A DNA stretch of 64,000 nucleotides from a virus. The stretch is from positions 41,337 to 105,336 of IMG/VR virus record IMGVR_UViG_3300025137_000020; one strand, written 5' to 3'. Both the position numbers and the translations under genes were made by a program. This document shows, one piece after another, positions 11,216-55,532 of this stretch (positions within the stretch are counted from its first letter, which is position 1; the number at the start of each line of letters is the position of its first letter). A model generated the notes under the pieces. The model was not told the origin of the DNA and searched no databases. It saw only the letters and a program-made list of their open reading frames with translations.

Positions 11216-14200
11216 TTAAAAATCAAAATCACCAGACTCAACTCCACCGTCTGTAATTTCTATTGATTTACCTCCACCCGAAACTGCTGTTACTAATAGT
11301 GTTCTGGCATTAGAAACTATGTTTGTCGGTGTAGTGTCATTAGGAGAATCATATTGTGCTCCTGCAAAATATTTTGTACTGCCCATAGTAAATTTGATGT
11401 CTGACGTATCAGTATCATTAAACGTAACAGCATTACCACTTACTGGATTCACTGCTATATCAACAATTGGGTTTTGTTGGTCTGATGCATCAACTACTTT
11501 AAATGTGCCACTCCTGCCTGTGCCAGTTACCCGCATTCCATTTACTATAGTGCCTGTTGGTGCTCCGGCTAATCTAATTGTAGTTTCTTTAAATATAATA
11601 GATTTACCATTCCCAATGTCGCCCGTAAGAGGACTACTTAATTCAATTGCACTCTGTCCAATACTAACAATTGTAACAGTTCCTGTTGGAAAATTAGCAT
11701 TTGTTGATGTTACCACCATTCCGGTCGATAAGCTACTCATACTATTACCGCTTTTGCCAGTTATAGTATGCACTCCCAACTTAGTATCTCCATTTATATA
11801 CGGTCTTTTTATTACTACATTATTTCCTAAATTTCCTGTAGGAGCTGAACTTATAGTTATCTGACTATTTGGTACATCAATATTGGTAATTGTAATTGTA
11901 CCAGATGGCCAAGTCGATGCGGTACAGGTTAACACATCGCCGATATTTAAATCTGCAATTGTATTTGTATAGCCATCTCTAAATCCATCGATTGCAAATG
12001 TAGCAGATGCTGCAGCAGTTTGATTTCTATCAAAGGTGAATACAGAACTTTTAGCAGTAGGTGCTACTCCAAATGTTCCAGTTGCATCTTCAATAGTACC
12101 AGTAGGTAATGTAAAGTACGCGTTATTCGCCCAAGATACATAGCATCTACTTAGTTCATCGCTATTAAATGTGGTTCCTGCAAAATCTATTTCCGGTCCA
12201 ACCGTCGCTCTACTTAAAGAACTTAGATTTAATTTATGAAATCCAATTAGCTTAACTCCACTTCCAATATTTTTAAACGCAGCATTCAATGTAGTTACAT
12301 TAGTCGTATCCAAACCTCTTACATCAATATGTCTAAGACTTGAACAATTTTCAAACAGTGTTCTTAAATTAGTAAGATTTGAAGTATTACTAATTCCTTT
12401 AATAGAAATGAAGTCGGTTAGTCCGGTACAACCTTTTAGTGATAATGATGCACTAGTACTACCACCTTGTACTAACGCCGAATTACCCAAATAGAATTTT
12501 CTTAAGTGTGTTTTGAAATTAGCTCGAGCTGCTGTTAATTGTATTGCAGTGATTCCAGTTACCGCCGCGGATGGACCTGAACTATTAATAGCCCCCACAT
12601 TAAATTTGTGGTATGTACCAGCCACTTTAATTATAAATCGTTGTGGTGATGCAGTTTCAGTATACACGTGATACAAATCGCGGTCTCTCGATGTGTCTAC
12701 TTGATTTGAGGTGCCGTCACCCCAATCGATTGAGATGTTATGGCCATTCGACGACTGATCTTTTTGGAATGGCAATATAATCATATTAGTATTAGTACCA
12801 CCAGAAGCTGGAATTTCAATTTCTATCAGAGTTTCGACTGGTGCGCCAGTACTTATAAGTGAGCCATTAATTTCATCTGAATATTCAATACCATTTTTAA
12901 TTTCGTCAATTGTCACTGAAAAGTCTTGGCCTTCAATAATATGACTGTAATTGCTAATAGCTTCATCTGCATTTAATATAGGTGTCTTCCAATTAATAAT
13001 TTGAATTTTCTTTTCATAATCATCTGCACCTAATTTATACTTAGCTTTGCCACTAGTAAGTTCTTCAATAGATGGTTCTAAGCCATTAACTTCATCGATT
13101 CGTGGAGCATAGAATTGTACTGGGTGTTCGGCATCTAATGGATTAGCATTCTGAAGAACAGTCAGCTGAATCTTAGTCATAGCAGAATTAAATTTCCAAT
13201 CTCCACGACTTGTAGAAGCTGGTAATGTACGAACTTTCAGTGGATTAGTACTTGGAAGATAGATACCACTATCTTCGTGGTCTGTAGTTCCTACATGCCC
13301 GAATGGTCTAATATGTCCGACTACTAAGAACCATTGATTTTCATTCAGTGGGTTTCCATCGGGCGATGAGGTTGTAGTTGAATTTAATCCAAAGTCAAAG
13401 TCATCTATAAATGTTGGTGTATTTATTTCATCACCGCTGGTAATGTTTATAGCTTCAAGTGTCGCACCAGAATCATTAAGTCCTTTCCATCTAAATACTT
13501 TAATACCACCGTCTGTAGTGTCATAAGGATTTACTCCTGCAGCGTATCTAACATCAGAAGCTTTAACCCATACTGACATTCGATATGTTTTACGTGTATC
13601 TACATCTACTTGTGGGCTTATAAATCCACCATCAGCAAAACTTATTACTTTACCGCTACTTGTATTAATAGTACCACTTACTAAATTTGCCCTGCCTATA
13701 AATTCTGTGCCGGAGGTAGTTAATGTTTGACCGGCTTTAATCTTAACTAAAATATTTGCTGTTTCATATACACCCGCTGCAGTAGTTTTACCATAATTAA
13801 CTCCACCATCCGTAATAGTAATTGATGTTGGTTTACCACCGCTTACTACAATCGTAGCTTTAGCTCCAACACCCACGGCATCTGAATCATTCGGCGAATC
13901 GGTTATTTCTACATTAGTGTATGTTCCATTAGTATATCCACTACCAGCTACATATCCTGTGCCACTTAAAAATATACTAGAAAGTTTTGCCCAGTCACCA
14001 TCTTTATTTCTGGCCTCCCATAATACATCTGTACTTCCAAATGGTGTTACACCTTCGAGCTGAACGTTTTCTTGCGTTGTTCTAAATGGAGAGTTACTTC
14101 CACTATTAAAGGCAATTGGGTTACCTAGAGCTTCAAAATTATTATTGGTTCCGGTACCGACTGTAAATGGTAAATTACCAGCTAGTAGATTTGATTCTAT

Positions 14201-17200
14201 TATCGGCAGCGCGTTTAAATCAAAGTCGCCTAAATTAGTATTCTTATCGCCTTTTACATTATAGAAATTAGTATCTGCGGGATGTTTAATATCAATTGCA
14301 ACACAAGCCTCATCATTTGTTTTAAGTGTATTTAACGAAATATCATAGTCTACATTATCTTTTAAGTCAATAATAGTTTCTCTTCTTTCGTCAATCTCGT
14401 CTTTGCCTTTTACTATATCAGAATCAAAACCTTCTTTAATATTAACGTCTTTGATATAGAAATATTCTCCGCTAGCATCACCAGTATACCCAGCATAACC
14501 ACGAAGTGCATTATCCTTTAGTGTAGTAACAAATCTAACTATAGGTCTAGGGTCTTGTTGAACAGAAGGTGCAATAAATTTATGAGTAAATGGTATCCAA
14601 TTGCCCTTTTCTGTCACAACTACTGGTTCAGTTCCATACGCGTCATAGCCGGCAAGATCGCCCGTCATAATCTGAAACTCGCCTGATAGATTTGAGAACA
14701 AAGGATTTCCAGTATCGTCATACACATATTGACCACTAATTTCGTCCGTAGCTCTTTGATTGATTCCTGCCATAACATGAATCTGTTCTAGTTTAGTATT
14801 TGTTGACGGTATATAAATCTTTCCGGTGACCTCATAAATCTCGCCTGGATTATATAATTCGCCTATTCCAAATCCACCAGACTCGTCACCGAGTGAAACA
14901 TAATGTAATACTGAAGAAGACGCAATATATTTTAAAGCACCATATTTACCTTTAGGTACGCCCAAGTATGGATTTCCGCTTGAATGATATTCTTGACCAA
15001 CATCCGCAGAATCTAAAGTTCTGTTCTCTAATGCAGGTACAATTAGAGTTCCGCCGTATTTAGTTGCGCCATCTGTGGCTGCAATACTGCTGAAATCTAC
15101 GGGTCTGTAAAATTCTGTATAAAAATTGGGGTGTTGATTTGTTCTTCCTATAAACCCAGCATCTGGAGCATCGGCGACTATACATTGGAAATTCCCTTGG
15201 TATACCCTCTTTCTTTTCTCGCGAACTTTAAAATTCTCAAGCTTCCAATTGTATTCATACAGTCTTTCGAGATCAGCGATTGCGGTATTAATTGCTAAAC
15301 TATTACCAGTCCTAGTTTGGTCTCTATCAACAATATGGTCAATTAGAATTTTAGGGTCATTCTCATCTGCGGGAATGTAAAGCTTATGTGTATTAGCGCC
15401 TTCTACAATCAGACCATTGTCTAATGGCTCTACTTTAACAAATCCACCGCTTCCGCTGATCCCATCGCCCGAATCTCTATTATAAAGTTGAAGTATATTT
15501 TCGCCAATAGATAGAAATTCTGATTCAAATACGAATAGGCTATAAAATTCACTCTCTGAAGTAATATTATTCAGCTGATTATTCTGGTCAGGTACTACTC
15601 TAACTGCCGTAGTAGATTTGTAATAGTCTACTGGAGTTCTTGTCCTACTTATCGAGTCGGCGTTAGTGTCATCAACTCTTAACTGGTGACCATTATGTGC
15701 AAAAGAGTATCCACCTTCAGCGTCTCCAATGTACAGATATATTCTACATATGCCTTCTAATGATGAGTTGAATTTAAATTCGTGAGGGCCTGTTCCGTGG
15801 TGTCCAGTACCACCCAAATCTGCATTTGGATTTCCAACACAAGAACTCGGGCTCGACCGACGTATTGGAAAATACTTTCCAATTTTACCGGCAGACAAGA
15901 ATAGATTCGCAGGAATATTTTTATCATTAATTTTAGTGGCATTAAACGAAATTTCATATGCCCGGTCTGATTCCCATCTAAAGTCATCCGATACATATGC
16001 ACCGAGCTCTCCTTTATTCACCGGTTCATTCGTAGAGAACTTAACATCTCTTGTTAAGTACAAGGGTCTGTCGTGAGTATTGCTTGCAAGCGCATTATGT
16101 TCAGTATTAATTTCACCATTACCTACAGTATCAACTATCAATGTTATGTCGGATAAACCTGAAAGATTTCCAATTTCAGCATTTGGAATGACAAATCTGT
16201 CGTATTCGTCAAAACCAGTTATATCAGTCAATAAGTCAATTTGACCATAGCTTCCGCCAATGCCCGCTCGATATGCTAATTCTAAACCACTACCAAACGA
16301 GCTTGTGATATCAACGCCATCTTTATCGGTTATAGTAAATTGGCCGTCAGTAAGTAATGTGTGCTCACTTATTGTACCAACAAGCGCTGACCTGCTAGCA
16401 GCTCCAGTTCGCCTAAAGCTTCGAGGTGTTGTAGCCTTAAGAGCTTGTGCGGAGTCTCCGCCCAATGATATAGTATTATTTAATTCCAATACTTCAATAC
16501 CACCGTTATATGTGAGTGGCGTGTAGTCAGTACTGGTTTCGGTCGCAGGAATTGGATTATGAGCAGGACTGTCAGAGGTTAACCTATCAAACGAAATACC
16601 AACTTTATCTGTTTCAGTAATTAAATATTTAACTTCTTCTTCGTCGCTTTTATTGGTTGAGTAGATATCTCTTACATCAATATTTGTAGGATATTTTGAC
16701 AACTGGTGAGGCAAAACATTATTGTGTAATAATGAATGTACACTCGGCGCTTCATTATTTTCATCTAAGTAATCAATTCTCGGTCTTGCGAATTCAATTT
16801 CATTGCCGGTAGTAATAGCTCTATACAAAAAACTTCTAATTAGAACCGCATTGGTGTCAGTGCCCAGCGAAAATTCTTGGATAGTTATACTAGAAATTTT
16901 ATTTTTAGTTTCAACAGAGTATATTCCGCCATCACTGTAATCATTATAGCTTAAGCTTTCAGCTTCCGTTCTTTTAAAGAAATTTTTATTATACGTGCCG
17001 TTACTGCCATCAGCTTTAGTTATATATCCAACTGCCATATACCATTTGCCTACTTCAATCCCATCTGGCAGAGAACTCAAATCAAAACTGAAAAAGTATG
17101 GATTATTAGTAGTAATTGTGTTATTCCGTTTCGACGCTACAGTTCCTCTTACACCACTACTTGTGCTGGTATATGGATAAGCGCCAAAATACAATTTGCC

Positions 17201-20200
17201 ATCGACCGCCTCATTAATTTTAAAAAATTGAATAAATCTGTAATCTTTAATCGCGGATTGGGTAGCTATAATCGGTGACTTGTATCCGCCGTTAGACCTT
17301 ATGCCCTCTACTGCATTTTTACTCGCGGCCCATACTACATCAATGTCTCCAAAGGGTCCAGTTCTAAATTCTCTAACCGACTCAGCATCATCTTTACTAA
17401 CACCATTCAAGCCAGTCCGATTCCATCGCCCAGTAACGCCATTCGCAGTAGTGTTAAAGTCACCGATACCCGGTCTCCACGGCAAATAGCTGGAAGATTT
17501 GAGTAGATTGGTTTCTACTTCAGGCGCAATATCCATTGAATGAACTCCGCTCAATTTAGAATCTTTCACTAAAGTGCCGACTGCAAATGTATTAGGATAT
17601 GTTTTGTTTGAATCAGTTGCTGGTGTAGGAACTACTGGAAGTGAGCTATTAGCAATTTTATTAAATCCAAAATTTGGGTCATGTTTTAAAATCGCATTGT
17701 TATAAACTGGTTTACCGTCAGCTCTTTCAATTTTTAAATTCTTAAATAGTGTACTAGGTACGTGTCCCTCTACTTTATTGGTAGTCGCGGGGCTGTAATG
17801 TCCAATAAGAACTATTCTAAACTTAGTTGAGGTTGGGTCAAACTTTGTAGACGAACGGCCAGTTTGATTTACGGGATATTTATTATATGAATATGGTGCG
17901 GTTCCAATTCGGGTATCAGCTCTGCGTGGATTAAATCCACTAAAGTTAGCAGTAAACGTTCTCGACTGCCCTCCAGTTAGATTGACACCACCGGCTATTC
18001 CGTAATTAAAGATCTGCTGCTCGTCAGAGAAAATTCTATTACCAGCATCATCAATACTGCTAACGCCGGCAAAAACCCTATTAGTTTTATCTGGCAATAA
18101 ATTTTCAATCTCTAATGATATATTGTATGTAGCATCTTCATCAATAGGTATTTCTAAAGGAATTTCTAACCATTGAGAATTACCATATAATACTAATCCG
18201 CCAAAGGCTTCGTCGTAATCATACCCGCCATGGTCAGCTCCGGTTTGCGCGTAATCGTTATAAGCAGTCACATATGGTGACCAGTCGTATCCAGTGAAAT
18301 CAATTTTACTGAGATACTTTGGATCGCTAGCTTCTAATTCGCTTCTGTGCTCCACCCAAGCACCATTTATATATTCTGAAACAGCTCCATTTGCATTAAT
18401 TCTTAATTTTTGATAGCCTGATGTGGGGTGAGCAATAACTACCGGATTACCCGTCAATACAGGTGTGTCAATACTAATTCTTTCTGTGCCGATGAATGGA
18501 TAATGTTCACATTTATCTGATGTAGTATATCTCAGTGATAATGACGGACTCACTTGCTGAGCATTGAGTGTCGACGTTAAAGTCGAGCTCGTCACTGTTT
18601 GAGACTTTTCAAATATTCTGTTATGCCTTTTGTCGTATACGATACATTGCGCAGTTCGCTTTCTGCTCCATGTAGTAGTCGAATTGCGATACTGAACACT
18701 GCCTTTGCTCTTTAACCATTCTCTTAAAAATGGTTCTCCTTGACTATTATTTCCTAATCTACAAGAAGATGCATCCTGAGTATATACAATAGCAATCTCA
18801 TTAGCTGAAATATTATCTAAGTGATTTACTAACTGCGATTCGGCGGCTTCGCTTTCAATGGTACTGTTGCCATACGTATCGTATGCTGCAGCCGAATAAG
18901 TTTTAGTAGTTGGATTGAATACTATTATGTTATGTCCGCGATTTACTTGGCCATAATTATATGTTGTAGCCGAACTGGTGGCTACTAATGTTGCGGAGCC
19001 AGATGCATTTTGAGTGGTAAGGTCTGGAAATATACCAGTACCTAGATTTGTGCCCGATAGCAATGTATTACCATCAGCTCTAAGACGGGCAATGTGCCAA
19101 GTTCCGTGTGTCGCTCCAGTTACCACCTCAGAAATATTTTCTTTCTTTATAACGTAAGTAGAATCACCGTCAGTGTGTCTGTAACTACCAAGCTTATTGG
19201 CAGAATATGCTCTATCAAAATCAGAGTTTGTTGCACTGCTTATTGTAATAGCCGACAATAAATCAAAAGTAGTACTAGGTCTTGCGACAGTTCTATCTGT
19301 AAAAGTAACGCCCCTAGCATACTCATCCTTTGAATCTAATTGTGTTCCCACAACTCTGAATACTGTATCTACAGCCTTTTGTTCTGCTGTAGCTGTTACG
19401 CCATTATCTGTAACCAATACGGAAACCTGTTTCTGACCATTTGGCAAATCATCAATTTGTTTAATTGATAATTCTCTTTCGTAGCCATCTTGACCTGTCC
19501 ATTTTGTACCAGCTACATATTTATCACTACCAGATTCCTTTAATTTAAAAGACAATTCAATTTCGGAATCTTTAGTAATCCTTGCGCCAGTACGTATACC
19601 GGTTCCATTACCATCTAAAGAAATATATTTGTCTTCGTATGCTAATGAATTAATACTGTTCAAAATAGCGTTATTGGTGTGTCCTTTTAGCGTAAAGCCG
19701 GCTGAATCACCATTAGTATCGATACCACCGTCACCGATTTGTTTTATTCTTAGTCCACTGTCGTGGTCATAGAACGTATCTTTTTTGCTATTAAAGTTAG
19801 GTTGAGTCGTTTTGTAAAATGCTGAGAATTTCTCATATAGAATAATTTCTAACAATACATTAAAGAAGTATTCCAACCAACCCGGCTGCCATTTTGGTGA
19901 GTGTTGGCCCTTTGCGACAGTCTGTTGAATAGCAGAAAGCCATACGCGTACACCATCAGCAACATTAATTCTTAATGGATCGCTATCTTTAGCTCGTCTA
20001 GATTCTAGTTCTAAGTACAACGCAGTAAAGAACTTTAAACCAGACGGGTGAATAAGTTTATTATAATCAGTATCCCATCTATCAACAGATAGGTTTGTTC
20101 TGATTACATATGAAAATTCTTGAAAGTAATCGCTATCGTGAAGTTTATTTACATCAGATAAAAATCCTTTTGTTCCGGCCCAAGATATTTTTCTAGGGTA

Positions 20201-22249
20201 TGAACTTCCACTGGAAGAAAGCCCAAAATTAGTTTCTACTATCGGGCTGCTAGCACTTCCAAACCCCTTTAACGCTGACGCGATAATCAGGTTCCGTCCC
20301 TTATTTGTAAAGTTAGTACTTCCATTATTATTAAAATCAATATCAATTATCTTGTTTAAGCCTGGTAATGACTTAGCGTTAACGTAATTTTTCAGCTCGG
20401 TGTCAGTACATACTCTATCATAAAAAGCAAACTGGTAAAAATATAATTCGCCATCTGGGTTTAAACCCTTTTCGCCACTTGTACCTGTTGAACCACTATT
20501 ATGGCAATACCCAAGCATCGATGGATATAGTGACATTTGATGATCGTTACGATCAATATTTCCGTTAGTTGTTGGCGTTATAGATTGCGGGCCGTTATCG
20601 GTCACGCCCGAATTTGTCATTGCAATTTTAACTACATCAAATGTAGTCATGATTCCGTTAGCTATTGTTGATTCTACAGTAATAGCTAATCTAATTCTCT
20701 GTCTACCTAAATTTGCGGTTTCTTGGAATGGAAATGCGCCTACTCCCGTTACATAGTTGTTAAATGTTTTACTAAAATCATTTTGATGATTACCAAACCG
20801 GCCAGCAATATTAAGATTATTGCTACCATCGATTTTAATAGAAACCCCACCGTCTTTACCTGCGTCTAGGCTTAGCTCATTTGCGCTTGCAAAATGAAGA
20901 TTGCTCGCGGCGAAAAGCGGGGAGTATTTGTGTGCATTTTGCTGGTTAGAATTATATCCAGCGGGTGGAGTAGGGTCTTTTCTATAATTATTTCCAAATT
21001 TAAAATCGATAAAGTATGTTGCTTTATTAACTTGCGAGTATGCACCCTGTTGGTAAAAAGCAATTCGTCTGTAATCCTCAAACCCCTTCTTATACCAGTA
21101 TTTTTCTAGTGTTGAAGATTCATCTGCAGTACCTTGGTATATGCCATCAGATGGTTTAAACAATACCTCTTTTGGATAAAATATAGAAGCAATCTCGTCA
21201 AAAAAGATTTTAAAGAAAGATTCGAGTGAAGCTTCACTACCCCGTGTATTATAATATTCTACAACCTTTTTATATAGTGAATTTCTATCTAAATTTTTAG
21301 CTTCGGGTATGCCTTTAGCAATTTCTTTTGATATTCTTCCAAGATAGTCATCTGTAGTTTTATCGATGTCGTGCTCTTCTAAAATTCTTTTTACCACATT
21401 AGTGGGTGAAGCAATAACATCACTGACTGTAAATATAGTAGTACCAAGAATATCAATTTCAATAACATCATCAATCCTGTATCCTTGCCCTGGTTTATTA
21501 GGAAAAACTGATACCGTTTTTCCCGTATCAACTACGATGTCTAATGTTAGGCCGGATCCGTGTCCGCCTATAGTTGGAACATTAGAAAAATTAATTAAAT
21601 CAGTTTTTGTCGGTGTAATCGCGGTGGTTAATGCAATAGGATTAATTGTCCCTTTTGAATACGCAGCTGACGTTGTGATGTCTGCAGTAATAGTCGATGC
21701 ACTTACGTGCTCAGACCACAATACATTTTCTAAATTGTCAATTTTACTACCAATTGGGTCAACCAACCAATCTCTATCATAAAAATCATATTTAACTTTA
21801 CCATCGAGTATTGATAGCATTACCCAAGTATCATTATAAGCAGTTCGACTAGAGTCGAGCCTCATTATAAAATACTCTGGCTGAATAAGACCTCTATAAA
21901 CTATAGTTCCTTTCGCTGATTGAGGAAAATTGCTCGCTACAATTTCTTCATCTGTCAATTTACCATATTGCTGATTATAAGTCGACGGGACAAATGATTT
22001 TACATCAAGTCCAAGTCGTGCATCAGATTCTTTTAAATCTGCATATTGAAGTTCTTCGCCAGAGCCAGTATTAATAATACTAATTCCGTTAACGACCCCA
22101 TCAATATTCATATAATCGTAATACTCTGTCAAAAGAGTAATAAGATTACTTGCATTACCTCTCAATTGCTCGGGTATGAGCGATTCTACGCGAGAAGACT
22201 CGTTATTATGTGGCTGAATTGCAAATGATTCAATGGCTTCGTGTGACAT
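11216..22249 (-). CDS. Giant multidomain baseplate/fibre protein, 3677 aa (gp7 position)
   Basis: This 11-kb gene lies between gp6 and gp8, where T4 has gp7 (about 1030 aa). Residues about 1-370 look phage-structural, with the block ISKEIAKGIPEAKNLDRNSL...KEVLFKPSDG seen in large structural proteins of marine T4-like phages. The long middle holds several beta-sandwich-like modules of LamG/carbohydrate-binding style (for example residues around 620-680, QFAFYDRVCTDTELKNYVNA). Residues about 3155-3200 contain a PKD-like ISIDWGDGTSNQVD. Residues about 3260-3400 carry BspA-type leucine-rich repeats (SLRHIDVRGLDTTNVTTLNA). The C-terminus has short beta repeats. It is probably a wedge protein enlarged with host-binding modules. 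The N-terminal assignment is moderate; the domain calls rest on pattern only. Confidence 0.8.
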   Translation of the reverse strand: MSHEAIESFAIQPHNNESSRVESLIPEQLRGNASNLITLLTEYYDYMNIDGVVNGISIINTGSGEELQYADLKESDARLGLDVKSFVPSTYNQQYGKLTDEEIVASNFPQSAKGTIVYRGLIQPEYFIMRLDSSRTAYNDTWVMLSILDGKVKYDFYDRDWLVDPIGSKIDNLENVLWSEHVSASTITADITTSAAYSKGTINPIALTTAITPTKTDLINFSNVPTIGGHGSGLTLDIVVDTGKTVSVFPNKPGQGYRIDDVIEIDILGTTIFTVSDVIASPTNVVKRILEEHDIDKTTDDYLGRISKEIAKGIPEAKNLDRNSLYKKVVEYYNTRGSEASLESFFKIFFDEIASIFYPKEVLFKPSDGIYQGTADESSTLEKYWYKKGFEDYRRIAFYQQGAYSQVNKATYFIDFKFGNNYRKDPTPPAGYNSNQQNAHKYSPLFAASNLHFASANELSLDAGKDGGVSIKIDGSNNLNIAGRFGNHQNDFSKTFNNYVTGVGAFPFQETANLGRQRIRLAITVESTIANGIMTTFDVVKIAMTNSGVTDNGPQSITPTTNGNIDRNDHQMSLYPSMLGYCHNSGSTGTSGEKGLNPDGELYFYQFAFYDRVCTDTELKNYVNAKSLPGLNKIIDIDFNNNGSTNFTNKGRNLIIASALKGFGSASSPIVETNFGLSSSGSSYPRKISWAGTKGFLSDVNKLHDSDYFQEFSYVIRTNLSVDRWDTDYNKLIHPSGLKFFTALYLELESRRAKDSDPLRINVADGVRVWLSAIQQTVAKGQHSPKWQPGWLEYFFNVLLEIILYEKFSAFYKTTQPNFNSKKDTFYDHDSGLRIKQIGDGGIDTNGDSAGFTLKGHTNNAILNSINSLAYEDKYISLDGNGTGIRTGARITKDSEIELSFKLKESGSDKYVAGTKWTGQDGYERELSIKQIDDLPNGQKQVSVLVTDNGVTATAEQKAVDTVFRVVGTQLDSKDEYARGVTFTDRTVARPSTTFDLLSAITISSATNSDFDRAYSANKLGSYRHTDGDSTYVIKKENISEVVTGATHGTWHIARLRADGNTLLSGTNLGTGIFPDLTTQNASGSATLVATSSATTYNYGQVNRGHNIIVFNPTTKTYSAAAYDTYGNSTIESEAAESQLVNHLDNISANEIAIVYTQDASSCRLGNNSQGEPFLREWLKSKGSVQYRNSTTTWSRKRTAQCIVYDKRHNRIFEKSQTVTSSTLTSTLNAQQVSPSLSLRYTTSDKCEHYPFIGTERISIDTPVLTGNPVVIAHPTSGYQKLRINANGAVSEYINGAWVEHRSELEASDPKYLSKIDFTGYDWSPYVTAYNDYAQTGADHGGYDYDEAFGGLVLYGNSQWLEIPLEIPIDEDATYNISLEIENLLPDKTNRVFAGVSSIDDAGNRIFSDEQQIFNYGIAGGVNLTGGQSRTFTANFSGFNPRRADTRIGTAPYSYNKYPVNQTGRSSTKFDPTSTKFRIVLIGHYSPATTNKVEGHVPSTLFKNLKIERADGKPVYNNAILKHDPNFGFNKIANSSLPVVPTPATDSNKTYPNTFAVGTLVKDSKLSGVHSMDIAPEVETNLLKSSSYLPWRPGIGDFNTTANGVTGRWNRTGLNGVSKDDAESVREFRTGPFGDIDVVWAASKNAVEGIRSNGGYKSPIIATQSAIKDYRFIQFFKINEAVDGKLYFGAYPYTSTSSGVRGTVASKRNNTITTNNPYFFSFDLSSLPDGIEVGKWYMAVGYITKADGSNGTYNKNFFKRTEAESLSYNDYSDGGIYSVETKNKISSITIQEFSLGTDTNAVLIRSFLYRAITTGNEIEFARPRIDYLDENNEAPSVHSLLHNNVLPHQLSKYPTNIDVRDIYSTNKSDEEEVKYLITETDKVGISFDRLTSDSPAHNPIPATETSTDYTPLTYNGGIEVLELNNTISLGGDSAQALKATTPRSFRRTGAASRSALVGTISEHTLLTDGQFTITDKDGVDITSSFGSGLELAYRAGIGGSYGQIDLLTDITGFDEYDRFVIPNAEIGNLSGLSDITLIVDTVGNGEINTEHNALASNTHDRPLYLTRDVKFSTNEPVNKGELGAYVSDDFRWESDRAYEISFNATKINDKNIPANLFLSAGKIGKYFPIRRSSPSSCVGNPNADLGGTGHHGTGPHEFKFNSSLEGICRIYLYIGDAEGGYSFAHNGHQLRVDDTNADSISRTRTPVDYYKSTTAVRVVPDQNNQLNNITSESEFYSLFVFESEFLSIGENILQLYNRDSGDGISGSGGFVKVEPLDNGLIVEGANTHKLYIPADENDPKILIDHIVDRDQTRTGNSLAINTAIADLERLYEYNWKLENFKVREKRKRVYQGNFQCIVADAPDAGFIGRTNQHPNFYTEFYRPVDFSSIAATDGATKYGGTLIVPALENRTLDSADVGQEYHSSGNPYLGVPKGKYGALKYIASSSVLHYVSLGDESGGFGIGELYNPGEIYEVTGKIYIPSTNTKLEQIHVMAGINQRATDEISGQYVYDDTGNPLFSNLSGEFQIMTGDLAGYDAYGTEPVVVTEKGNWIPFTHKFIAPSVQQDPRPIVRFVTTLKDNALRGYAGYTGDASGEYFYIKDVNIKEGFDSDIVKGKDEIDERRETIIDLKDNVDYDISLNTLKTNDEACVAIDIKHPADTNFYNVKGDKNTNLGDFDLNALPIIESNLLAGNLPFTVGTGTNNNFEALGNPIAFNSGSNSPFRTTQENVQLEGVTPFGSTDVLWEARNKDGDWAKLSSIFLSGTGYVAGSGYTNGTYTNVEITDSPNDSDAVGVGAKATIVVSGGKPTSITITDGGVNYGKTTAAGVYETANILVKIKAGQTLTTSGTEFIGRANLVSGTINTSSGKVISFADGGFISPQVDVDTRKTYRMSVWVKASDVRYAAGVNPYDTTDGGIKVFRWKGLNDSGATLEAINITSGDEINTPTFIDDFDFGLNSTTTSSPDGNPLNENQWFLVVGHIRPFGHVGTTDHEDSGIYLPSTNPLKVRTLPASTSRGDWKFNSAMTKIQLTVLQNANPLDAEHPVQFYAPRIDEVNGLEPSIEELTSGKAKYKLGADDYEKKIQIINWKTPILNADEAISNYSHIIEGQDFSVTIDEIKNGIEYSDEINGSLISTGAPVETLIEIEIPASGGTNTNMIILPFQKDQSSNGHNISIDWGDGTSNQVDTSRDRDLYHVYTETASPQRFIIKVAGTYHKFNVGAINSSGPSAAVTGITAIQLTAARANFKTHLRKFYLGNSALVQGGSTSASLSLKGCTGLTDFISIKGISNTSNLTNLRTLFENCSSLRHIDVRGLDTTNVTTLNAAFKNIGSGVKLIGFHKLNLSSLSRATVGPEIDFAGTTFNSDELSRCYVSWANNAYFTLPTGTIEDATGTFGVAPTAKSSVFTFDRNQTAAASATFAIDGFRDGYTNTIADLNIGDVLTCTASTWPSGTITITNIDVPNSQITISSAPTGNLGNNVVIKRPYINGDTKLGVHTITGKSGNSMSSLSTGMVVTSTNANFPTGTVTIVSIGQSAIELSSPLTGDIGNGKSIIFKETTIRLAGAPTGTIVNGMRVTGTGRSGTFKVVDASDQQNPIVDIAVNPVSGNAVTFNDTDTSDIKFTMGSTKYFAGAQYDSPNDTTPTNIVSNARTLLVTAVSGGGKSIEITDGGVESGDFDF

Positions 22250-26183: not shown

Positions 26184-26474
26184 TTAACCTCCTGCAAATA
26201 CGTTTGATGAACCAGACGCGACTGAAGTACATCCACTAATACCATCACCAACTCTTCCGCATCCTAGTCCATTTACTTTTACTGTGCTTGAACCTGCAGC
26301 GATCGGTGCAGAGTGCGATGGGCAAGGAGAACCAGGAAGTAAGTGCCCTGTGTTATTATCGCCTTGGCGAGACACAGCAATTCCATTAGCGAAAACATTT
26401 CCACTTCCGGCTGCTCTCACCATTCCACTACAATGAGCCACATCTGCGTCTCCTATTCTTGTTACTGCTGGCAT
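26184..26474 (-). CDS. PAAR-motif spike tip protein
   Basis: This 96-aa protein has the PAAR organisation: the opening MPAVTRIGDADVAHCSG, repeated short Gly-rich beta hairpins, GSPCPSHSAPIAAGSSTVKV and the closing GRVGDG. PAAR proteins form the sharpened metal-binding cone at the end of the central spike; the His and Cys residues here (HC, H, CPSH, C) suit iron or zinc. It lies two genes from gp5, the spike trimer it would cap (T4 uses gp5.4). The ATG is 5 nt from a TATAAATA box. Confidence 0.93.
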   Translation of the reverse strand: MPAVTRIGDADVAHCSGMVRAAGSGNVFANGIAVSRQGDNNTGHLLPGSPCPSHSAPIAAGSSTVKVNGLGCGRVGDGISGCTSVASGSSNVFAGG

Positions 26475-26479
26475 ATCTC

Positions 26480-26487
26480 TATTTATA
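26480..26487 (-). promoter_or_regulatory. Late promoter box 5 nt upstream of PAAR start
   Basis: TATAAATA on the minus strand is followed by GAGAT and then ATG. This very short spacing recurs at several other late genes in the window. Confidence 0.6.
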
Positions 26488-26489
26488 CC

Positions 26490-28073
26490 CTAAGTGGCGG
26501 TTTCCATATAAGTCTTTAACCACGTTAAAGCTGGTCTTTCTCCCGTACCATCACGATTAATTAATCCAGTCTGATGGCCCTGGTCGTATCTCCAATTCTC
26601 TGTGTTAATATATCCCCAAATCGTTACCCGTTCTACATTAGGGTGATTCCATATCGCTGGAAAAATAACTTGATATCTATCGAGTTGCTTTTGATCTATA
26701 TCGATACTATCGCTGTTTGTACCTGAGATATCAAGCTCTGTAATGTGGATAGGTAATCCAGTTTGACTATGTACATCGTCAATGGCTGCAGTGATTTGAG
26801 CTGCGGTCAAATCATTAATATTAAAATAATGAGATTGCATACCAACTCCGTCAATTAAATTTGGATTATGATTTTTAATTGCATTGACTGCAGCACAATT
26901 TTCATCACGAACTGTTTGATTACTCATCATACCAAAATCGTTTATCCAAATTTTTGCATTTGGAAAATAATTTCTTACTGTCTCGAAAATATAAATCGCC
27001 CAATCATAACCACTCGTACCAGCTCCACCAAATTGATTTATGATTCGAGTAGTACCAGCGTCTTGGTGACCTGTAGCGATTTCATTAAGCGCTGCGATAC
27101 CATAGATATCATCTCCATATCGTGTAGATATTGCACTACACCAAGTTTCAAAGGCCGACTTACTTTCAGCAACACTTAAACCTTCCCACCAATCGGGTGT
27201 ACCTTGATCAGCTCCCCAAATTAATGTATGCCATAACATTTTAATCCCATTTCTCTTACAATGAGCATGTAATATATCAGCTCCACTAAAATCGAATGTA
27301 CCACGAACCTTTTCTACTGGTTGCCATTTACAAAGATTGCCAGCGGCCGCACTATTCCATAAGTCGGCATAATTTGCAGCATTTTGCTCAGTAACAAAAG
27401 GTTGAGTGGATTGTATCTCACTCATCTGAGCAGTATTAATATTTCCAAGCAACTTACTCTTTTGATATGCTAATGCACCTATATTATCTGCAACTTGTAC
27501 ACGTTGTGCAGTAGCTCTACCTATAAGTTGAGCAAAAATATTTTGGTTTAAAACAGTATGAGTAAATGAATAAGTTAATCCATCAGTCGCACCACTGTCA
27601 TATTTTATTGCAAATTGTACTTGATACGTAACATCAACTTCACTGGAGCCCTCTTCGGCCTTAAATAATTCAACGTTGTCGGGCAAAGCAGTTATATTGT
27701 TTCCTATAGTGGGGGTTTCAATTAAATCACTTGAACCAGCCGAAACGTGTTTTACTACGTCGTCTGTGAATGCCCCATCGTATTGTCCGACTAATCTTAT
27801 TTTATATTCTCCACTGGTATCTACATCATGTGGATATGTTACAGCTGTTCCGCCTAGCTCAAGAGTGATTGTTATAGTATCATTCGTGCTTATGTTTTGA
27901 CTGATGTCAATAAAAGGCGAACCCGTCATGTGGGTCAATCCTGTTATTTCGGTGATATTACCATCGGGGCTAGAGTCTAAGTTTTTATTAACAGTAATTA
28001 GCTTTGTAAAATTAAATGCTTTGCCACGAGCTTTATCTTGGGAATTAATATCTGTGATTTCAATATCTGACAT
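26490..28073 (-). CDS. GH10-family glycoside hydrolase (xylanase-like) in the baseplate operon
   Basis: This 527-aa protein has two parts. Residues 1-190 form a beta-rich N-terminal domain that may dock it to the virion. Residues about 200-525 carry the GH10 signature set in order: KWQPVEKVRGTFDF (44-KWxxxEPxxGxFxF type), WHTLIW with His282, ALNEIATG with the acid/base Glu331, IWINDFGM, IDGVGMQSHY, and HITELDIS with the nucleophile Glu446, then VTIWGYIN. GH10 enzymes cleave beta-1,4-xylan and related glycans by a retaining mechanism, and both catalytic glutamates are present. The gene is embedded between gp5 and the PAAR tip and overlaps the preceding small ORF by one base. It probably clears capsule or exopolysaccharide at adsorption; the substrate is unknown. 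Confidence 0.88.
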   Translation of the reverse strand: MSDIEITDINSQDKARGKAFNFTKLITVNKNLDSSPDGNITEITGLTHMTGSPFIDISQNISTNDTITITLELGGTAVTYPHDVDTSGEYKIRLVGQYDGAFTDDVVKHVSAGSSDLIETPTIGNNITALPDNVELFKAEEGSSEVDVTYQVQFAIKYDSGATDGLTYSFTHTVLNQNIFAQLIGRATAQRVQVADNIGALAYQKSKLLGNINTAQMSEIQSTQPFVTEQNAANYADLWNSAAAGNLCKWQPVEKVRGTFDFSGADILHAHCKRNGIKMLWHTLIWGADQGTPDWWEGLSVAESKSAFETWCSAISTRYGDDIYGIAALNEIATGHQDAGTTRIINQFGGAGTSGYDWAIYIFETVRNYFPNAKIWINDFGMMSNQTVRDENCAAVNAIKNHNPNLIDGVGMQSHYFNINDLTAAQITAAIDDVHSQTGLPIHITELDISGTNSDSIDIDQKQLDRYQVIFPAIWNHPNVERVTIWGYINTENWRYDQGHQTGLINRDGTGERPALTWLKTYMETAT

Positions 28074-28270
28074 TACATAGTTTCCCGTTCTAGTAATTCT
28101 TGTAACTTACCTTCCCACTGTTCCATTTCCTCATGCTGTTCATCAGTATGAGGTGGGTCAGGCATCTCTGGTACAAATGCAATTACGTTCTCAAATGACT
28201 CTGGTATTTCTTCAAAATTCTGATATACCTTAGTTCTACCACCTATTAAAATTTTAAAATAGTGTGCCAT
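28073..28270 (-). CDS. Small acidic protein between gp5 and GH10 gene
   Basis: This 65-aa protein begins MAHYFKILIGGRTKVYQNFEEIP and has an acidic, His-containing helical C-terminus (DPPHTDEQHEEMEQWEGKLQ). It shares single bases with both neighbours (its start with the gp5 stop, its stop with the GH10 start), so translation is coupled. No known family is recognised. Context suggests a hub-associated or assembly role. Confidence 0.75.
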   Translation of the reverse strand: MAHYFKILIGGRTKVYQNFEEIPESFENVIAFVPEMPDPPHTDEQHEEMEQWEGKLQELLERETM

Positions 28271-29622
28271 TAGTTTAGATTAATCCGCGAACCGTCGATA
28301 TCTGTAATTCCTGCTGCGTGTAAGTCCATCGCATCTGGTGTATCTACAGTAATCTTTCCGGTCGCGTCAATATCTAAAGTCGATGTCACATCAATCTTAT
28401 ATGTAGTATCAATAACATCTGTTCTTGCACCGGTATTTTGTTTAAGCGTACCAATAACTGACCGCGATTCATTACCCATAATTACACTCTTTAAATTTTT
28501 ACCAAATGTGATATTCCCGCTTCTCTTACATTCAAACTCAAACGCTCTTGGAGAATCATTTGCTGATGGAGATTGGTGACTAGCGTGAATAGTTCTTTTT
28601 TCGAATTCGCCAATACTAGAAATTAAATTTCCTTTTACATTCATCATTTGGTTTTTATCTACTTCAAGGAAATCAGACATCACGATCTTTTCATGCTTAT
28701 TGCCACGAACTAAAAGGTGATAATCTTTTTCTACTTCCATATAATAATCGCCTTTAACCAATGTTCTTGCATCACCGTTAATAGTTACATTGCAATTTCC
28801 TTTAATAGAAACATTATTATTTTCAAGTACAACCTTATATTCATTTCCATTTACAACGATAGTTTTATCTCCACTAGCATCAATTTCACTATAAGTACCT
28901 GAAGTGTGTTGTACTAAAATTCTTTCGTTATTGGGAGTTTCATCAAATTCTACAATATGACCACAGCCGTATTCTTTAGTATGGCAATTAGGATACGTAG
29001 GATTTGTAATATCTTCTTGGCTTTCTTGTAACCATCGTTTTCTTTCAAAGAATTTGGCGTCTTTCTGCAAAGTATTCTTAAGTGTGTCTGTGCTAGGCGG
29101 AACCGCCATTGGTATATTTACTTTCTTGCCGTCTTTATCGAGCGCGCGAGAATCATTCCGTAAACTACTTTTATCAATATAAGACTTAGACTCCCTATAT
29201 TCACTGGTAGCACCTTTAGGTTGGTCATTCGCGTTTGCAGTTCTGGGATTTTCTCCAAATGGGTCCGCGAACCCCTTTTCGTAATCAGAACCCATGGGTG
29301 TTCTAGATGGTAATGTTCCTAATACTAATGGGTCTTGGCATGCCTCGCCATCTCTAAAGAATCCAACTACCCAGCTACCTTGAACAACACCAGTAGCAGC
29401 TTCACCAATACCAGAGCATGACCCAGAAGTAATCGGTGTCATCACATTCGCCCACGGCAAATCAATAGTACGAATACCGTCTTCTTTATTTTTATTTGAG
29501 GTGTGATAACCAAAGCATCTTACTCTCACTCGTCCTTGTTCATACGGGTCGTGAATATCTTCTACTACACCAATAAACCAATGAAACCCCGTTGATAGGA
29601 AATTATTATTTTTATAATCCAT
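28270..29622 (-). CDS. 5: Baseplate central spike gp5 (OB fold plus beta-helix, no lysozyme domain)
   Basis: This 450-aa protein starts with a gp5/VgrG OB-fold region (FHWFIGVVEDIHDPYEQGRVRVR, then LPWANVMTP and WVVGFFRDGEACQDPLVLGTL). From about residue 215 it runs into a beta-helix with short valine/glycine repeats (ISIKGNCNVTINGDARTLVKGDYYMEV style, residues about 260-350). T4 gp5 is 575 aa and has a T4-lysozyme-type domain between these parts. Here that interval is a short polar linker without lysozyme motifs, so peptidoglycan must be cut by another enzyme or not at this step. It is preceded by the gp27-like hub gene. Confidence 0.92.
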   Translation of the reverse strand: MDYKNNNFLSTGFHWFIGVVEDIHDPYEQGRVRVRCFGYHTSNKNKEDGIRTIDLPWANVMTPITSGSCSGIGEAATGVVQGSWVVGFFRDGEACQDPLVLGTLPSRTPMGSDYEKGFADPFGENPRTANANDQPKGATSEYRESKSYIDKSSLRNDSRALDKDGKKVNIPMAVPPSTDTLKNTLQKDAKFFERKRWLQESQEDITNPTYPNCHTKEYGCGHIVEFDETPNNERILVQHTSGTYSEIDASGDKTIVVNGNEYKVVLENNNVSIKGNCNVTINGDARTLVKGDYYMEVEKDYHLLVRGNKHEKIVMSDFLEVDKNQMMNVKGNLISSIGEFEKRTIHASHQSPSANDSPRAFEFECKRSGNITFGKNLKSVIMGNESRSVIGTLKQNTGARTDVIDTTYKIDVTSTLDIDATGKITVDTPDAMDLHAAGITDIDGSRINLN

Positions 29623-33706: not shown

Positions 33707-33714
33707 TATTTATA
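33707..33714 (-). promoter_or_regulatory. Late promoter box for the leftward gp48 operon
   Basis: Perfect TATAAATA on the minus strand about 45 nt upstream of gp48. It interlocks with the plus-strand box at 33687-33694, so the two transcripts start at almost the same base and diverge. Confidence 0.7.
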
Positions 33715-46817: not shown

Positions 46818-47249
46818 CTATTTATAAAAGATGTGCCGTCCAATGACCGCGGTTTTTCTCATACTTTTAGTCCAATAAGGACTCTTAATATAATTAGCGT
46901 GATAGTGATCAGCTCCGTTAACATAATTGCTTTCTCTGCCCAATGCTCTTTTGGCGATTTCCCAACGAGGGTGTGACTTGGCTTTTGTGATTCCGTCTTC
47001 TACTGAAATTTCATTCCAACAAGAAAATTGTTTTCTCTGTAAACATACTTCCGCTGGAGTTAAATTTCTTTTCATTGCTCTATTCACTATCACCTCGTGA
47101 ACTGCTTCAATCGCGCCGACATAATATTCACCACCTGCTTCTAAGATGATAGTTGCAATAACTACATCTTGTTCATAAGTACTGCCCTCACAACTTTTGC
47201 AACCAATGATTGCAGCCATCATAACTAACCATGCTAATATAATCTTCAT
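46818..47249 (-). CDS. SleB-type cell wall hydrolase (endolysin) with lipoprotein-like signal
   Basis: 143 aa with the Hydrolase_2/SleB pattern: [20 protein letters not shown] with putative catalytic Glu37, VHEVIVNR, then [23 protein letters not shown] and IGRHIFYK. This family cleaves peptidoglycan glycan strands. The N-terminus [20 protein letters not shown] is a signal with a lipobox (IIGC, Cys17), so the enzyme may be exported by the host and lipidated rather than released through a holin. The final TAG is part of the late box of the next gene. Confidence 0.85.
46819..46826 (-). promoter_or_regulatory. Late promoter box inside the SleB stop codon region
   Basis: TATAAATA on the minus strand; its last bases form the SleB stop TAG with the next base. 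It lies 8 nt before ATG 46810 and would start the lysis/envelope transcript running to the terminator at 45076. Confidence 0.65.
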
Positions 47250-48385
47250 AATAAAATCTGTGTAATCTTTTCTGCTAAATCCTTAAACCATTCTACTCCA
47301 TGGCCTCGAGTTGTTTCAGCCGCGGTGCCGATACGAATACCACTTGTTTCAACAAACGATCTTTTATCATTAGGTACTCCATTCTTATTTACGGTGATGT
47401 CATTCTCTTCTAATAAGTCAGCGGCGTGTCTTCCGCTATAGGGTTTATCGCTTAGGTCGATTAGTACAATGTGAGAATCTGTACCTCCACACTGTACTTT
47501 AAATCCGTTCTTAATAAATACTTCAGCCATCGCTTTAGCATTATCTATAACTGCTTGAGCATAATATCTGAACTCTTTAGTGTCTGCCTCAACGAACGCT
47601 TGAGCTTTCCCTGCAACGATATTCATGAGTGGACCACCTTGAGTGCCAGGAAAGATTGCACTGTTAATCTTCTTTGAGTAAGATTCGTCGTTCCAAAGAA
47701 TAATACCACCTCGTGGACCTCTTAGAGTTTTGTGAGTAGTTGACGTAACAACATCAGCATAAGGCACAGGAGATGGATAAGCATTACCCGCAATCAAACC
47801 TGAGTAGTGAGCCATGTCGACTAAAAGATATGCCCCAACTCTATCAGCGATTTCTCTAAACGTTTTAAAGTCAATTACACCAGGATAAGCACTTGCTCCT
47901 GCAATAATCATTTTTGGTTTAACGTCTTCTGCTTGTTTTTGAATCGCATTATAATCTAAAAAGCCATTTTCATCTACACCATAGTGATGTGATTCGTATA
48001 CTTTACCAGATATATTCACTTTAGCTCCATGTGATAAGTGGCCACCACTCGCTAAATCCATTCCGAGAATCTTATCACCTGGCTTTAATAGCGCTTGATA
48101 GACCGCAGTGTTTGCATTAGCACCACAATGAGGTTGAACATTAGCAAACTTACACCCATAGATATCCTTTAGCTTTTCAATAGCAAAAGTTTCAATAGTA
48201 TCCATGTGTTCACAACCATTATAGTAACGCTTACCTGGATAACCTTCAGCATACTTATTTGTAAATATACTACCAGCTAATTCCATTACAGCATTACTAG
48301 CAAAGTTCTCACTCGCAATAAGTTCAATCGTCTTTGATTGGCGTAGCTGTTCTTGTACTAAAATTTCTTTAATTTCTTTGTTCAT
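47246..48385 (-). CDS. glyA: Serine hydroxymethyltransferase (SHMT)
   Basis: 379 aa, shorter than typical bacterial SHMT (about 415-430). It has [34 protein letters not shown], the PLP site [12 protein letters not shown] (Asp190, His192) and the Schiff-base lysine in [14 protein letters not shown] (Lys219). It converts serine and THF to glycine and methylene-THF. Methylene-THF is the one-carbon donor for the phage dCMP hydroxymethylase encoded at 58929-59738, so it probably boosts hydroxymethylcytosine synthesis. It overlaps the SleB start by four bases. Confidence 0.95.
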
Positions 48386-48389
48386 CGTT

Positions 48390-49847
48390 TTATCGTATCA
48401 TATTGTCCAAAAACTCGGTGTGGTCATCGGCCTGTAATAATAATTTATTAATAGTTTCTTTGTATTCTGATGGTGATGGACTTAATTGTTCATAGCCGTG
48501 GAGGTTAAATTTATTATTGTTAATTTCTATACCATTTATTACCTGTAAATATTGATAAAGACCAAAATCATCGTCGATGTTATAATCTAAGTTTCTTAGA
48601 TTATTTTCTTTAATATTGTCTAACATAGTTTGTAGTTTAGAAGGAATGGGGTAATCATCTCTGAAGTTTTTCCAAAATTTACTTGTATTTCTTTTTGTCA
48701 TATAATGAAGATACAGAAAATTCAAGACATCGTCCATCCTGTCTCCCATAATTTCATTAAACAGATCTAAACTTTTTTGATTAGGGTTCTCAGTCTCATT
48801 TATAAAATGTTTAAACGTTTCTAGTTGACCTATAGTCAACATTAAAGAAGTGGCTTCGAGAGGCTCTACAAAACCGGTAGATAAGCCTACAGCCATGCAG
48901 TTTTTTATCCATACGTTTTGCTGTCTACCTGCTTTGAATGGTATAACTTTTCTAACAGTCAAATCTCTTTTAAAATAATTTTGTGCCTCGTCAAGTGCTT
49001 GGTCTTCGTCAATATAATCGCTATCAAAAACATAACCAGAGCCTGTTCTATGTTGTAGCGGTATTTGCCATATCCACCCGTGATCTAGTGCTACGGCGGA
49101 TGTGTAAGGATTAATCTTTTCATCGCGATCAATCCAAAAGGCTATTGACTTCTTCATGGGCAGGTGTTTTGAATAAGAAATCCATTTTCCATTAAACACT
49201 TTATCTATAAGTAGTCTTGCAAAACCAGAACAATCGAAGGTAAAATCGACATCAAGTTTAATGCCATTAGTCAGATTAATATTTTTGATATAGCCGTTAT
49301 CTGATTTTTCTACATGACTAAAATCGCCAGTTACAACTTCAATACCTCTTTCTTCTCCTACCTCTTGTAAATATTTAGATAGGAGTTGTGCATCAAAGTG
49401 TAATGAATACGAGGTCTTACTTAAATCAATTAATTTTTTATACGACAATTTAGAAGTATAGATGTATTCATTGAAATCTAAACCGTTTTGCATTAAATGT
49501 TTAATATAATACTCTTCACACCCGCTGTGAAAAATATTTTTAATGCCAAAATTAGAAATTGTATCGCTAAAGCCATGGAAGTATTTTTTTCCATCACCAT
49601 TCCAGTTTTCAAAGGATATGCCATGTTTTATACTACCTTTTGTGTTTCTTAACACGGCGAATGGACAAATATCTAATTCGCGTAAGAAGTCAACTACGTT
49701 AGGGGTAGTGCCTTCGCCGACACCAATGGCTCCTATTGTTTCTCCTTGAACTAATTTAATGTTGGCTAAAGGAAATAGTTTTTTTATATACAGCGCAGTA
49801 AGCCAACCAGCGGTGCCTCCACCTAAAATGCAATAATTTTTCTTCAT
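48390..49847 (-). CDS. Flavin-dependent tryptophan halogenase-like protein
   Basis: 485 aa. The N-terminal FAD motif is GGGTAGW (residues 9-15), then VGEGTTPN. The lysine corresponding to PrnA Lys79 is in [11 protein letters not shown] (Lys74). The halogenase signature GWIWQIP is at 257-263, and the [10 protein letters not shown] segment holds the Glu (331) matching PrnA Glu346. The enzyme family uses FADH2, O2 and halide to chlorinate or brominate indole or other aromatic substrates. A flavin reductase is not visible nearby. The phage substrate is unknown. Confidence 0.9.
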
Positions 49848-55090: not shown

Positions 55091-55532
55091 TAGTTACTCT
55101 TTCTCTCAATTCACTGGTTGAAAAGGAATGCCGTCTTTTATTATAGTGGATATGGCATAACCCTTTCCCCGTGTGTTCTTTGTTTTTATATTCTTCTCCA
55201 CAGATTCTAATATCGGGGTTGATAGTTTGAATCATATCTTCTAAATCTTTTTCGCTTTCAAATGGTATTACTTCATCGACATACTGACAAGACGCAACCT
55301 GAACATATCTTTCAAAGATAGACTGAATAGGTTTGTTCTTTGTGTCGGGCCGATCCAGAGTTGGGTCTGTTAAAAGTCCTATAATTAAATAGTCACACAA
55401 TTGCTTTGACTCCTGTAGCATTACTACATGGCCTGCGTGCATTAAGTCAAATGACGATGCGGTGAAGCCAACTACTACTTCTTCAATTGGCTTATCTAGC
55501 TTCCGCGCTAGTTCTTTCTTATCAATAAACAT
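55080..55532 (-). CDS. Cytidylyltransferase-family nucleotidyltransferase
   Basis: 150 aa. SSFDLMHAGHVVML contains the HxGH motif (His32-Ala-Gly-His35), and RRHSFSTSELRER contains the Ser-Thr-Ser-Glu of the family's RTxGISTT region. The length equals TagD-type glycerol-3-phosphate cytidylyltransferases. It would make CDP-X (or ADP-X) plus PPi from CTP and a phosphorylated polyol, aminoalcohol or sugar. Its partner upstream is a HAD-kinase fusion that could supply the phosphorylated substrate. Confidence 0.85.
   Translation of the reverse strand: MFIDKKELARKLDKPIEEVVVGFTASSFDLMHAGHVVMLQESKQLCDYLIIGLLTDPTLDRPDTKNKPIQSIFERYVQVASCQYVDEVIPFESEKDLEDMIQTINPDIRICGEEYKNKEHTGKGLCHIHYNKRRHSFSTSELRERVTNGK

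What the first reader, a model, noticed from the sequence alone, without database searches (positions are those of the whole stretch)
26490..28073. GH10 xylanase-like enzyme built into the baseplate spike operon
Both GH10 catalytic glutamates and the core motifs are intact. The gene lies between gp5 and the PAAR tip with one-base overlaps and is preceded by a 190-residue docking-like domain. Baseplate polysaccharide hydrolases are usually fibre or tailspike proteins, and a GH10 is unusual here. It points to a host with beta-1,4-linked xylan-like or other exopolysaccharide.
Basis: partly seen in the sequence, partly recalled or inferred. Interest (0 to 1): 0.8.

Follow-up and report, generated by a model that had tools for sequence, protein, structure and literature searches.

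The report
Xylanase-family enzyme on phage spike tip
This uncultured T4-like virus of bacteria has fused a sugar-chain-cutting enzyme of the xylanase GH10 family onto a small protein encoded between its needle and the needle's tip, in a gene block that related viruses swap as a unit, which suggests that it carries an exchangeable sugar cutter to get through its host's coat; no protein has been tested.

Summary
The gene is real. ORF 26490-28073(-) is 527 aa with a full GH10 domain (Pfam E=4.8e-49), the GH10 barrel in the predicted structure, both catalytic Glu (E331, E446) and nearly all subsite residues. dN/dS of the GH10 part is 0.06-0.09. Corrections: a 65-aa gene (sm65) lies between gp5 and the GH10 gene, and PAAR follows after 15 bp. 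Main result: the N-terminal ~180 residues are homologous to a stand-alone ~160-aa protein that sits in the same place (gp5-sm65-SP-PAAR) in about 100 other T4-like phage contigs and in Prochlorococcus phages P-HM1/2 (misnamed 'RTX toxin'). Only three contigs, the window and two IMG/VR relatives, have GH10 fused to it; one relative adds Ig-like domains and a subtilase gene. The block from the gp5 C-terminus to PAAR has recombined as a unit: against a 99%-identical phage it is the only divergent stretch, and against a ~55-60%-identical phage the only conserved one. This phage's gp5 has lost the T4 lysozyme domain. Best reading: a virion-borne GH10 depolymerase on the central spike tip. Virion location is inferred; host and substrate are unknown. 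GH10 in viruses has been reported before, but I found no report of one at a spike tip.

The parts
28270..29622 (-). gp5-like central spike protein (450 aa): OB domain plus C-terminal spike repeats, without the lysozyme domain of T4 gp5
   Evidence: Pfam Gp5_OB and Gp5_trimer_C, phrog_430; aligned to PX29 gp5, residues 127-194 replace PX29 122-392, so the lysozyme region is absent
28073..28270 (-). sm65: 65-aa conserved small protein, one-base overlaps with gp5 and with the GH10 gene
   Evidence: 91-92% identical in L002/L003; homologues next to PAAR in cyanophages and in ~145 loci of the survey
27540..28073 (-). SP (slot protein) domain, residues ~1-178 of the 527-aa protein: predicted beta-sandwich, proposed docking domain
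   Evidence: profile of 20 stand-alone SPs hits residues 34-174 at E=1.4e-9, 0 of 200 shuffles; iterated profile 1.7e-11; model all-beta; Foldseek top hit P-HM1 'putative RTX toxin'
27462..27539 (-). predicted helical linker, residues ~179-204
   Evidence: helices 179-190/197 in both models, low confidence
26490..27461 (-). GH10 catalytic domain, residues ~205-527
   Evidence: Pfam PF00331 E=4.8e-49; core pLDDT above 90; Foldseek 4pmy E=3e-25, TM 0.87 on target
27081..27083 (-). codon of E331, predicted acid/base
   Evidence: aligned to the GH10 NE motif, invariant in 48 relatives
26736..26738 (-). codon of E446, predicted nucleophile (ITELD motif)
   Evidence: invariant in 48 relatives
26480..26487 (-). 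TATAAATA, T4-late-promoter-like, just upstream of PAAR
   Evidence: the total count in the window is at chance level, so position only
26184..26474 (-). PAAR spike-tip protein (gp5.4-like, 96 aa)
   Evidence: Pfam PAAR_motif E=3.8e-9; 82% identical to P-HM2 PAAR
26287..28365 (.). exchange cassette: gp5 C-terminal codons + sm65 + SP-GH10 + most of PAAR
   Evidence: DNA identity profile against L002 and L003 and alignment of both junctions

Best explanation
The 527-aa protein is a structural spike-tip protein carrying a catalytically competent GH10 beta-glycanase. Its N-terminal SP domain is a version of a small protein that many T4-like phages encode between gp5 and PAAR and that probably docks at the gp5/PAAR tip (inferred from gene order, co-exchange and homology). 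The GH10 domain was fused to its C-terminus. On the virion it would be presented at the front of the tail and cut a beta-1,4-linked xylan-like or other glycan in the host's capsule, exopolysaccharide or outer envelope during adsorption and penetration. The block recombines between phages as a unit, so the enzyme can be exchanged. Shown: GH10 homology, intact active site, purifying selection, SP homology, conserved gene order, cassette exchange, gp5 without lysozyme domain. Inferred: virion incorporation, exact location, timing and substrate.
For: GH10 domain and fold; catalytic and subsite residues; GH10 dN/dS 0.058 and 0.09; SP homology found by a profile built without the GH10 proteins; in the main survey gp5-sm65-SP-PAAR order repeats and all 97 other SPs are 118-188 aa stand-alone proteins, and those in a further survey are 133-211 aa; cyanophages P-HM1/2 have the sm65-SP-PAAR order; the BFVD match to a 145-aa protein of Acinetobacter phage 133 has the length of Acj133p155, which lies exactly between gene 5 and gene 5.4; cassette boundaries coincide with the gp5 C-terminus and PAAR in two independent comparisons, as expected if these proteins touch; related loci carry other enzymes at the same place: a subtilase gene (L002) and a PAAR-Peptidase_M15 fusion (L033); the gene continues the spike gene series, and a TATAAATA lies 44 bp upstream of the first gene of that series.
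Against: No proteomics or structure of a virion. The AlphaFold model of the SP domain is only moderate (pLDDT 66.8) and has no PDB match at E<=0.001. SP sequence identity to stand-alone members is low (15-26%). In a published virion proteome of S-CREM2 the small sm65 and PAAR products do not appear in the passages I read, so detection of such tip proteins is not a given. Host and substrate unknown. The record is 105 kb and probably incomplete, so a separate tail lysozyme may exist elsewhere. Only three loci, two of them from near-identical phages.
Confidence: 0.62

Rival explanations
1. Penetration enzyme: GH10 takes the place of the missing gp5 lysozyme and acts under the outer membrane after sheath contraction, on a periplasmic or wall-associated glycan.
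For: gp5 lacks the lysozyme region and PF00959 is not found in the record; the enzyme is encoded beside the spike tip; a PAAR-M15 peptidase fusion in L033 shows a wall-type enzyme at the tip.
Against: No GH10 is known to me to cut peptidoglycan, and the substrate-contacting residues are those of xylanases. In the loci where a gp5-like protein was found at all, it is often short (280-470 aa) although there is no GH10, so loss of the lysozyme is not tied to the gain of GH10.
Confidence: 0.17
2. Release or metabolic enzyme: a late soluble GH10 that helps progeny escape from host matrix or feeds the host, not a virion part.
For: Viral GH10 genes have been reported as auxiliary CAZymes in mangrove soil viromes (PMC6460857).
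Against: The reading frame begins with the phage SP domain (MSDIEITDIN...), not with a signal peptide like that of the Xanthomonas-type enzyme in L254 (sequence reading); it is fused to a phage-specific domain and exchanged together with gp5 tip and PAAR.
Confidence: 0.12
3. Binding module: the GH10 fold is kept as a carbohydrate receptor-binding domain without meaningful catalysis.
For: One subsite -2 glutamate of classical GH10 (Cex E43) is Gly245 here.
Against: The same Gly occurs in 11 of 48 bacterial relatives; both catalytic Glu and all other checked subsite residues are intact; dN/dS 0.06-0.09.
Confidence: 0.06
4. Assembly artefact or host contamination.
For: The GH10 domain is closest to bacterial, mainly Bacteroidota, enzymes.
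Against: Three separate contigs carry it in the same phage context, with an 89-99% identical GH10 domain.
Confidence: 0.01

Closest known systems
GH10 xylanases of the Xanthomonas XynB / Bacteroidota type (PDB 4pmx/4pmy)
   Same: Whole catalytic domain, fold, both catalytic Glu, most subsite residues; up to 41% identity to a bacterial protein (Balneola)
   Different: No signal peptide, N-terminal phage domain instead; own long branch in the tree, weakly grouped with a Prolixibacteraceae enzyme; activity untested
T4 central spike: gp5 with built-in lysozyme plus gp5.4 PAAR tip
   Same: OB-domain gp5, spike repeats, PAAR tip, baseplate gene series; an enzyme belongs to the spike complex
   Different: Lysozyme domain absent; the enzyme is a different family on a separate protein encoded between gp5 and PAAR, with an extra 65-aa gene
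Stand-alone slot protein of T4-like phages (phrog_23903 'toxin'; P-HM1/P-HM2 'putative RTX toxin', T4-GC 504)
   Same: Same position between sm65 and PAAR; homologous N-terminal domain
   Different: 118-211 aa and no enzyme in every other member seen; here GH10 is fused at its C-terminus
Caulobacter phage Cr30 'beta-1,4 xylanase' (OZ74_gp072)
   Same: A phage gene annotated as xylanase in a large myophage
   Different: Best Pfam match is GH39, with GH10 only a weak partial hit; no clear similarity (E=0.008, 21% over 102 aa); 394 aa, among hypothetical genes and not beside annotated baseplate genes
Virion depolymerases (tail fibres and tailspikes)
   Same: Glycan-cutting enzyme proposed to be carried by the particle
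   Different: Known ones are described as tail fibres or tailspikes on the baseplate (PMC5380687); this one is a TIM barrel encoded in the central spike slot
T6SS and eCIS PAAR/VgrG-carried effectors
   Same: PAAR tip region as a place for exchangeable enzymatic cargo (PMC8651086)
   Different: A phage virion, a non-PAAR adaptor domain, and a glycanase with no immunity gene seen

Membership tests
Glycoside hydrolase family 10 | Significant match to the family profile over the catalytic domain | tested here: met
   PF00331 167.7 bits, cut-off 22.1, profile 19-308 of 311
Glycoside hydrolase family 10 | (beta/alpha)8 barrel | tested here: met
   model core pLDDT above 90; Foldseek to 4pmy, TM 0.87 on target, 3.1 A
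Glycoside hydrolase family 10 | Acid/base and nucleophile glutamates | tested here: met
   E331 and E446 aligned and invariant
Glycoside hydrolase family 10 | Conserved subsite residues N44, K47, H80, W84, Q87, N126, Q203, H205, W273, W281 (Cex numbering, from memory) | tested here: met
   N246 K249 H282 W286 Q290 N330 Q413 H415 W486 W494; the further residue E43 is G245, as in 11 of 48 relatives
Glycoside hydrolase family 10 | Endo-beta-1,4-xylanase (or other GH10) activity | not testable with these tools
   needs recombinant protein
T4-like central spike complex component | Encoded between gp5 and PAAR in conserved order | tested here: met
   a protein in the same slot before PAAR in P-HM1/2, Acinetobacter phage 133, Aeromonas PX29
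T4-like central spike complex component | Present in virions, bound to gp5 or PAAR | not testable with these tools
   no virion available; co-exchange with gp5 tip and PAAR is indirect support
Slot-protein (SP, phrog_23903) family | Profile match with controls | tested here: met
   E=1.4e-9 with profile from stand-alone members only, 0 of 200 shuffles; hhalign probability 95.7. The 527-aa protein itself does not reach phrog_23903 at E 0.01
Classical tailspike depolymerase | Tail fibre or tailspike protein with the trimeric RBP layout | tested here: not met
   central-spike gene slot and TIM-barrel GH10 enzyme; oligomeric state not tested
T4 gp5-type tail lysozyme | Lysozyme domain in gp5 or elsewhere | tested here: not met
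   no PF00959 in the record; gp5 lacks the region

The most novel reading that the evidence does not exclude
In T4-like phages the interval between gp5 and PAAR is a general cargo dock: a small adaptor (SP) or PAAR itself carries exchangeable enzymes (GH10 glycanase here, subtilase gene in L002, M15 peptidase on PAAR in L033), moved between phages as a cassette that includes the gp5 tip, much as T6SS and eCIS tips carry exchangeable effectors.
Probability: 0.4. Interest if true: 0.75.

Novelty: new variant of a known kind. Interest (0 to 1): 0.6.

Why it matters
Virion glycan-cutting enzymes are known as tail fibres and tailspikes, while the central spike is known for peptidoglycan lysozymes. 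A GH10 glycanase built onto the spike tip would be a different place and a different enzyme class for getting through the cell surface. It also gives a testable role to a widespread protein family now annotated as 'toxin' or 'RTX toxin' (phrog_23903), and predicts that the gp5-tip to PAAR block is a swappable module linked to host surface chemistry.

Tried and rejected
Close relatives of the N-terminal region alone: none beyond the two known loci by direct scan; relatives appeared only through gene order and profiles. First bacterial GH10 scan with too narrow an alignment gave nothing; it worked after adding the Xanthomonas XynB sequence. L254/L255 looked like viral GH10 loci; L254 begins with a signal-peptide-bearing Xanthomonas-type gene beside phage-like genes, so I set both aside (L255 not read separately). 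Three short faecal 'Bacteriophage sp.' records with 23-28% GH10-like matches have no annotation and were not counted. An alignment mixing GH10-only and SP-only rows misaligned the SPs and was not used for folding. A PDB fold search with the SP model gave nothing reliable. phiR1-37 g141 precedes PAAR but shows no SP similarity. PX29 gp5.1 sits in the slot but scores E 2.7, so homology is not claimed. TATAAATA counts are at chance in the window. Chance similarity and contamination were rejected.

Full report
What is there. The window is part of a 105,336-base virus record of a T4-like phage. TerL is nearest to Phage C48C1 (65%), the capsid protein and gp6 to Methylophilales phage Melnitz and Pelagibacter or cyanobacterial phages; the host is unknown. 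On the minus strand the gene order is gp48-like, gp53-like, a hub protein, gp5, a 65-aa gene (sm65), the 527-aa GH10 protein, PAAR, a 535-559 aa protein, gp25, gp6 and a giant gp7-like protein. The GH10 and PAAR genes are separated by 15 bp containing TATAAATA. A TATAAATA also lies 44 bp upstream of the first gene of the series (33707-33714), but the number of such sites in the window is no more than expected by chance.

The enzyme. Residues 223-519 match GH10 at E=4.8e-49. The full-length AlphaFold model has a confident barrel, and its best PDB match is Xanthomonas XynB, TM 0.87 on the target. Among 48 bacterial relatives, mostly Bacteroidota, Ignavibacteriota and Xanthomonadales, the acid/base E331, nucleophile E446 and ten further active-site positions agree (Q290 in most, the others in all or nearly all); one -2 subsite glutamate is Gly245, as in 11 of these relatives. 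In the tree the phage sequences form their own long branch, with a Prolixibacteraceae sequence as weakly supported neighbour. GH10 dN/dS is 0.058 (against L002) and 0.09 (against L003, dS 0.77), so it is under strong constraint.

The N-terminal domain. A survey of about 80 PAAR loci and 80 SP loci from IMG/VR shows a repeated order gp5-sm65-SP-PAAR or gp5-sm65-PAAR. SP is a 118-188 aa protein in all cases except the window, L002 and L003 (L013 is the same contig as L003). A profile built only from 20 stand-alone SPs hits the window protein at residues 34-174 with E=1.4e-9 and none of 200 shuffles. P-HM1 and P-HM2 have sm65, SP and PAAR in the same order, with SP annotated 'putative RTX toxin' (phrog_23903). 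The model of residues 1-200 is an all-beta fold followed by a helix, moderate confidence; its best viral structure matches are the P-HM1 protein (which was in the alignment) and proteins of Aeromonas phage 65.2 and Acinetobacter phage 133 (which were not). In Acinetobacter phage 133 a protein of the same length, 145 aa, lies exactly between genes 5 and 5.4; that the two are the same protein is inferred from length.

A swapped cassette. Against L002 the window is ~99% identical at DNA level, except about 28,365 to 26,287, where it falls to 67-90% apart from the GH10 3' part. Against L003 it is mostly 50-70% identical outside and 59-89% inside that interval, highest in sm65, GH10 and PAAR. At base level L002 and L003 share a near-identical start of the block within the last ~25 codons of gp5, and the other edge lies in the 3' part of PAAR. 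L002 carries in the same block a Ser-rich linker and Ig-like domains after GH10, and a subtilase gene before PAAR. In L031/L033 PAAR itself bears a C-terminal Peptidase_M15_3 domain. A second survey with sm65 found further SPs (133-211 aa) and unidentified 202-453 aa proteins in the slot, but no other GH10 fusion to SP.

Spike without lysozyme. gp5 here is 450 aa; against PX29 gp5 it lacks the ~200-residue lysozyme region, and no phage lysozyme profile matches anywhere in the record, which may be incomplete. Because many loci of the survey without GH10 also have short gp5 proteins, I do not claim that GH10 replaced the lysozyme.

How it most likely works. I propose that SP docks at the gp5/PAAR tip and presents GH10 at the front of the tail, where it cuts a surface glycan during entry. 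Docking, virion presence, timing and substrate are inferred. The main alternative is action beneath the outer membrane after contraction.

Novelty. Viral GH10 genes have been listed as auxiliary CAZymes in mangrove soil viromes (PMC6460857). The Cr30 'xylanase' named in a review (PMC5380687) is GH39-like and not beside annotated baseplate genes. In the papers searched here I found no GH10 linked to a central spike; the library is limited to open-licence papers. IMG/VR scans need exact short patterns, so three loci is a lower bound. I class it as a new variant of a known kind: a probable virion depolymerase in an unusual enzyme family and place.

Noticed in passing
window 48390-49847 (-): Tryptophan halogenase gene (PF04820 E=4.9e-112), nearest phage homologue in Pelagibacter phage HTVC008M (40%), others in cyanophages.
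   Followed up: partly
L031:504-1469 and L033:1915-2880: PAAR spike-tip protein with a C-terminal Peptidase_M15_3 domain (321 aa): a probable wall-cutting enzyme on the tip of another phage.
   Followed up: partly
L002:7661-9289: Subtilase (S8) gene inserted between the GH10 gene and PAAR; the L002 GH10 protein also has a Ser-rich linker and Ig-like domains.
   Followed up: partly
window 11216-22249 (-): 3677-aa giant gp7-position baseplate protein, comparable with the very large gp7 of P-HM2.
   Followed up: no
L202:759-1262: 167-aa reading frame that begins like PAAR and continues into a gp25-like sequence; fusion or assembly error.
   Followed up: no
L278:6754-8115, L298:6834-7775, L274:6767-7375: Unidentified proteins of 202-453 aa with a shared 'TFADK..SV.L.DLD.NF.YL' start lie between SP and PAAR; no PHROG match.
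   Followed up: partly
window 47246-48385 (-) and 55522-57953 (-): Serine hydroxymethyltransferase, an APH-like kinase and a DNA glucosyltransferase-like gene, with a cytosine methylase at 53897-55090; possible DNA modification set.
   Followed up: no
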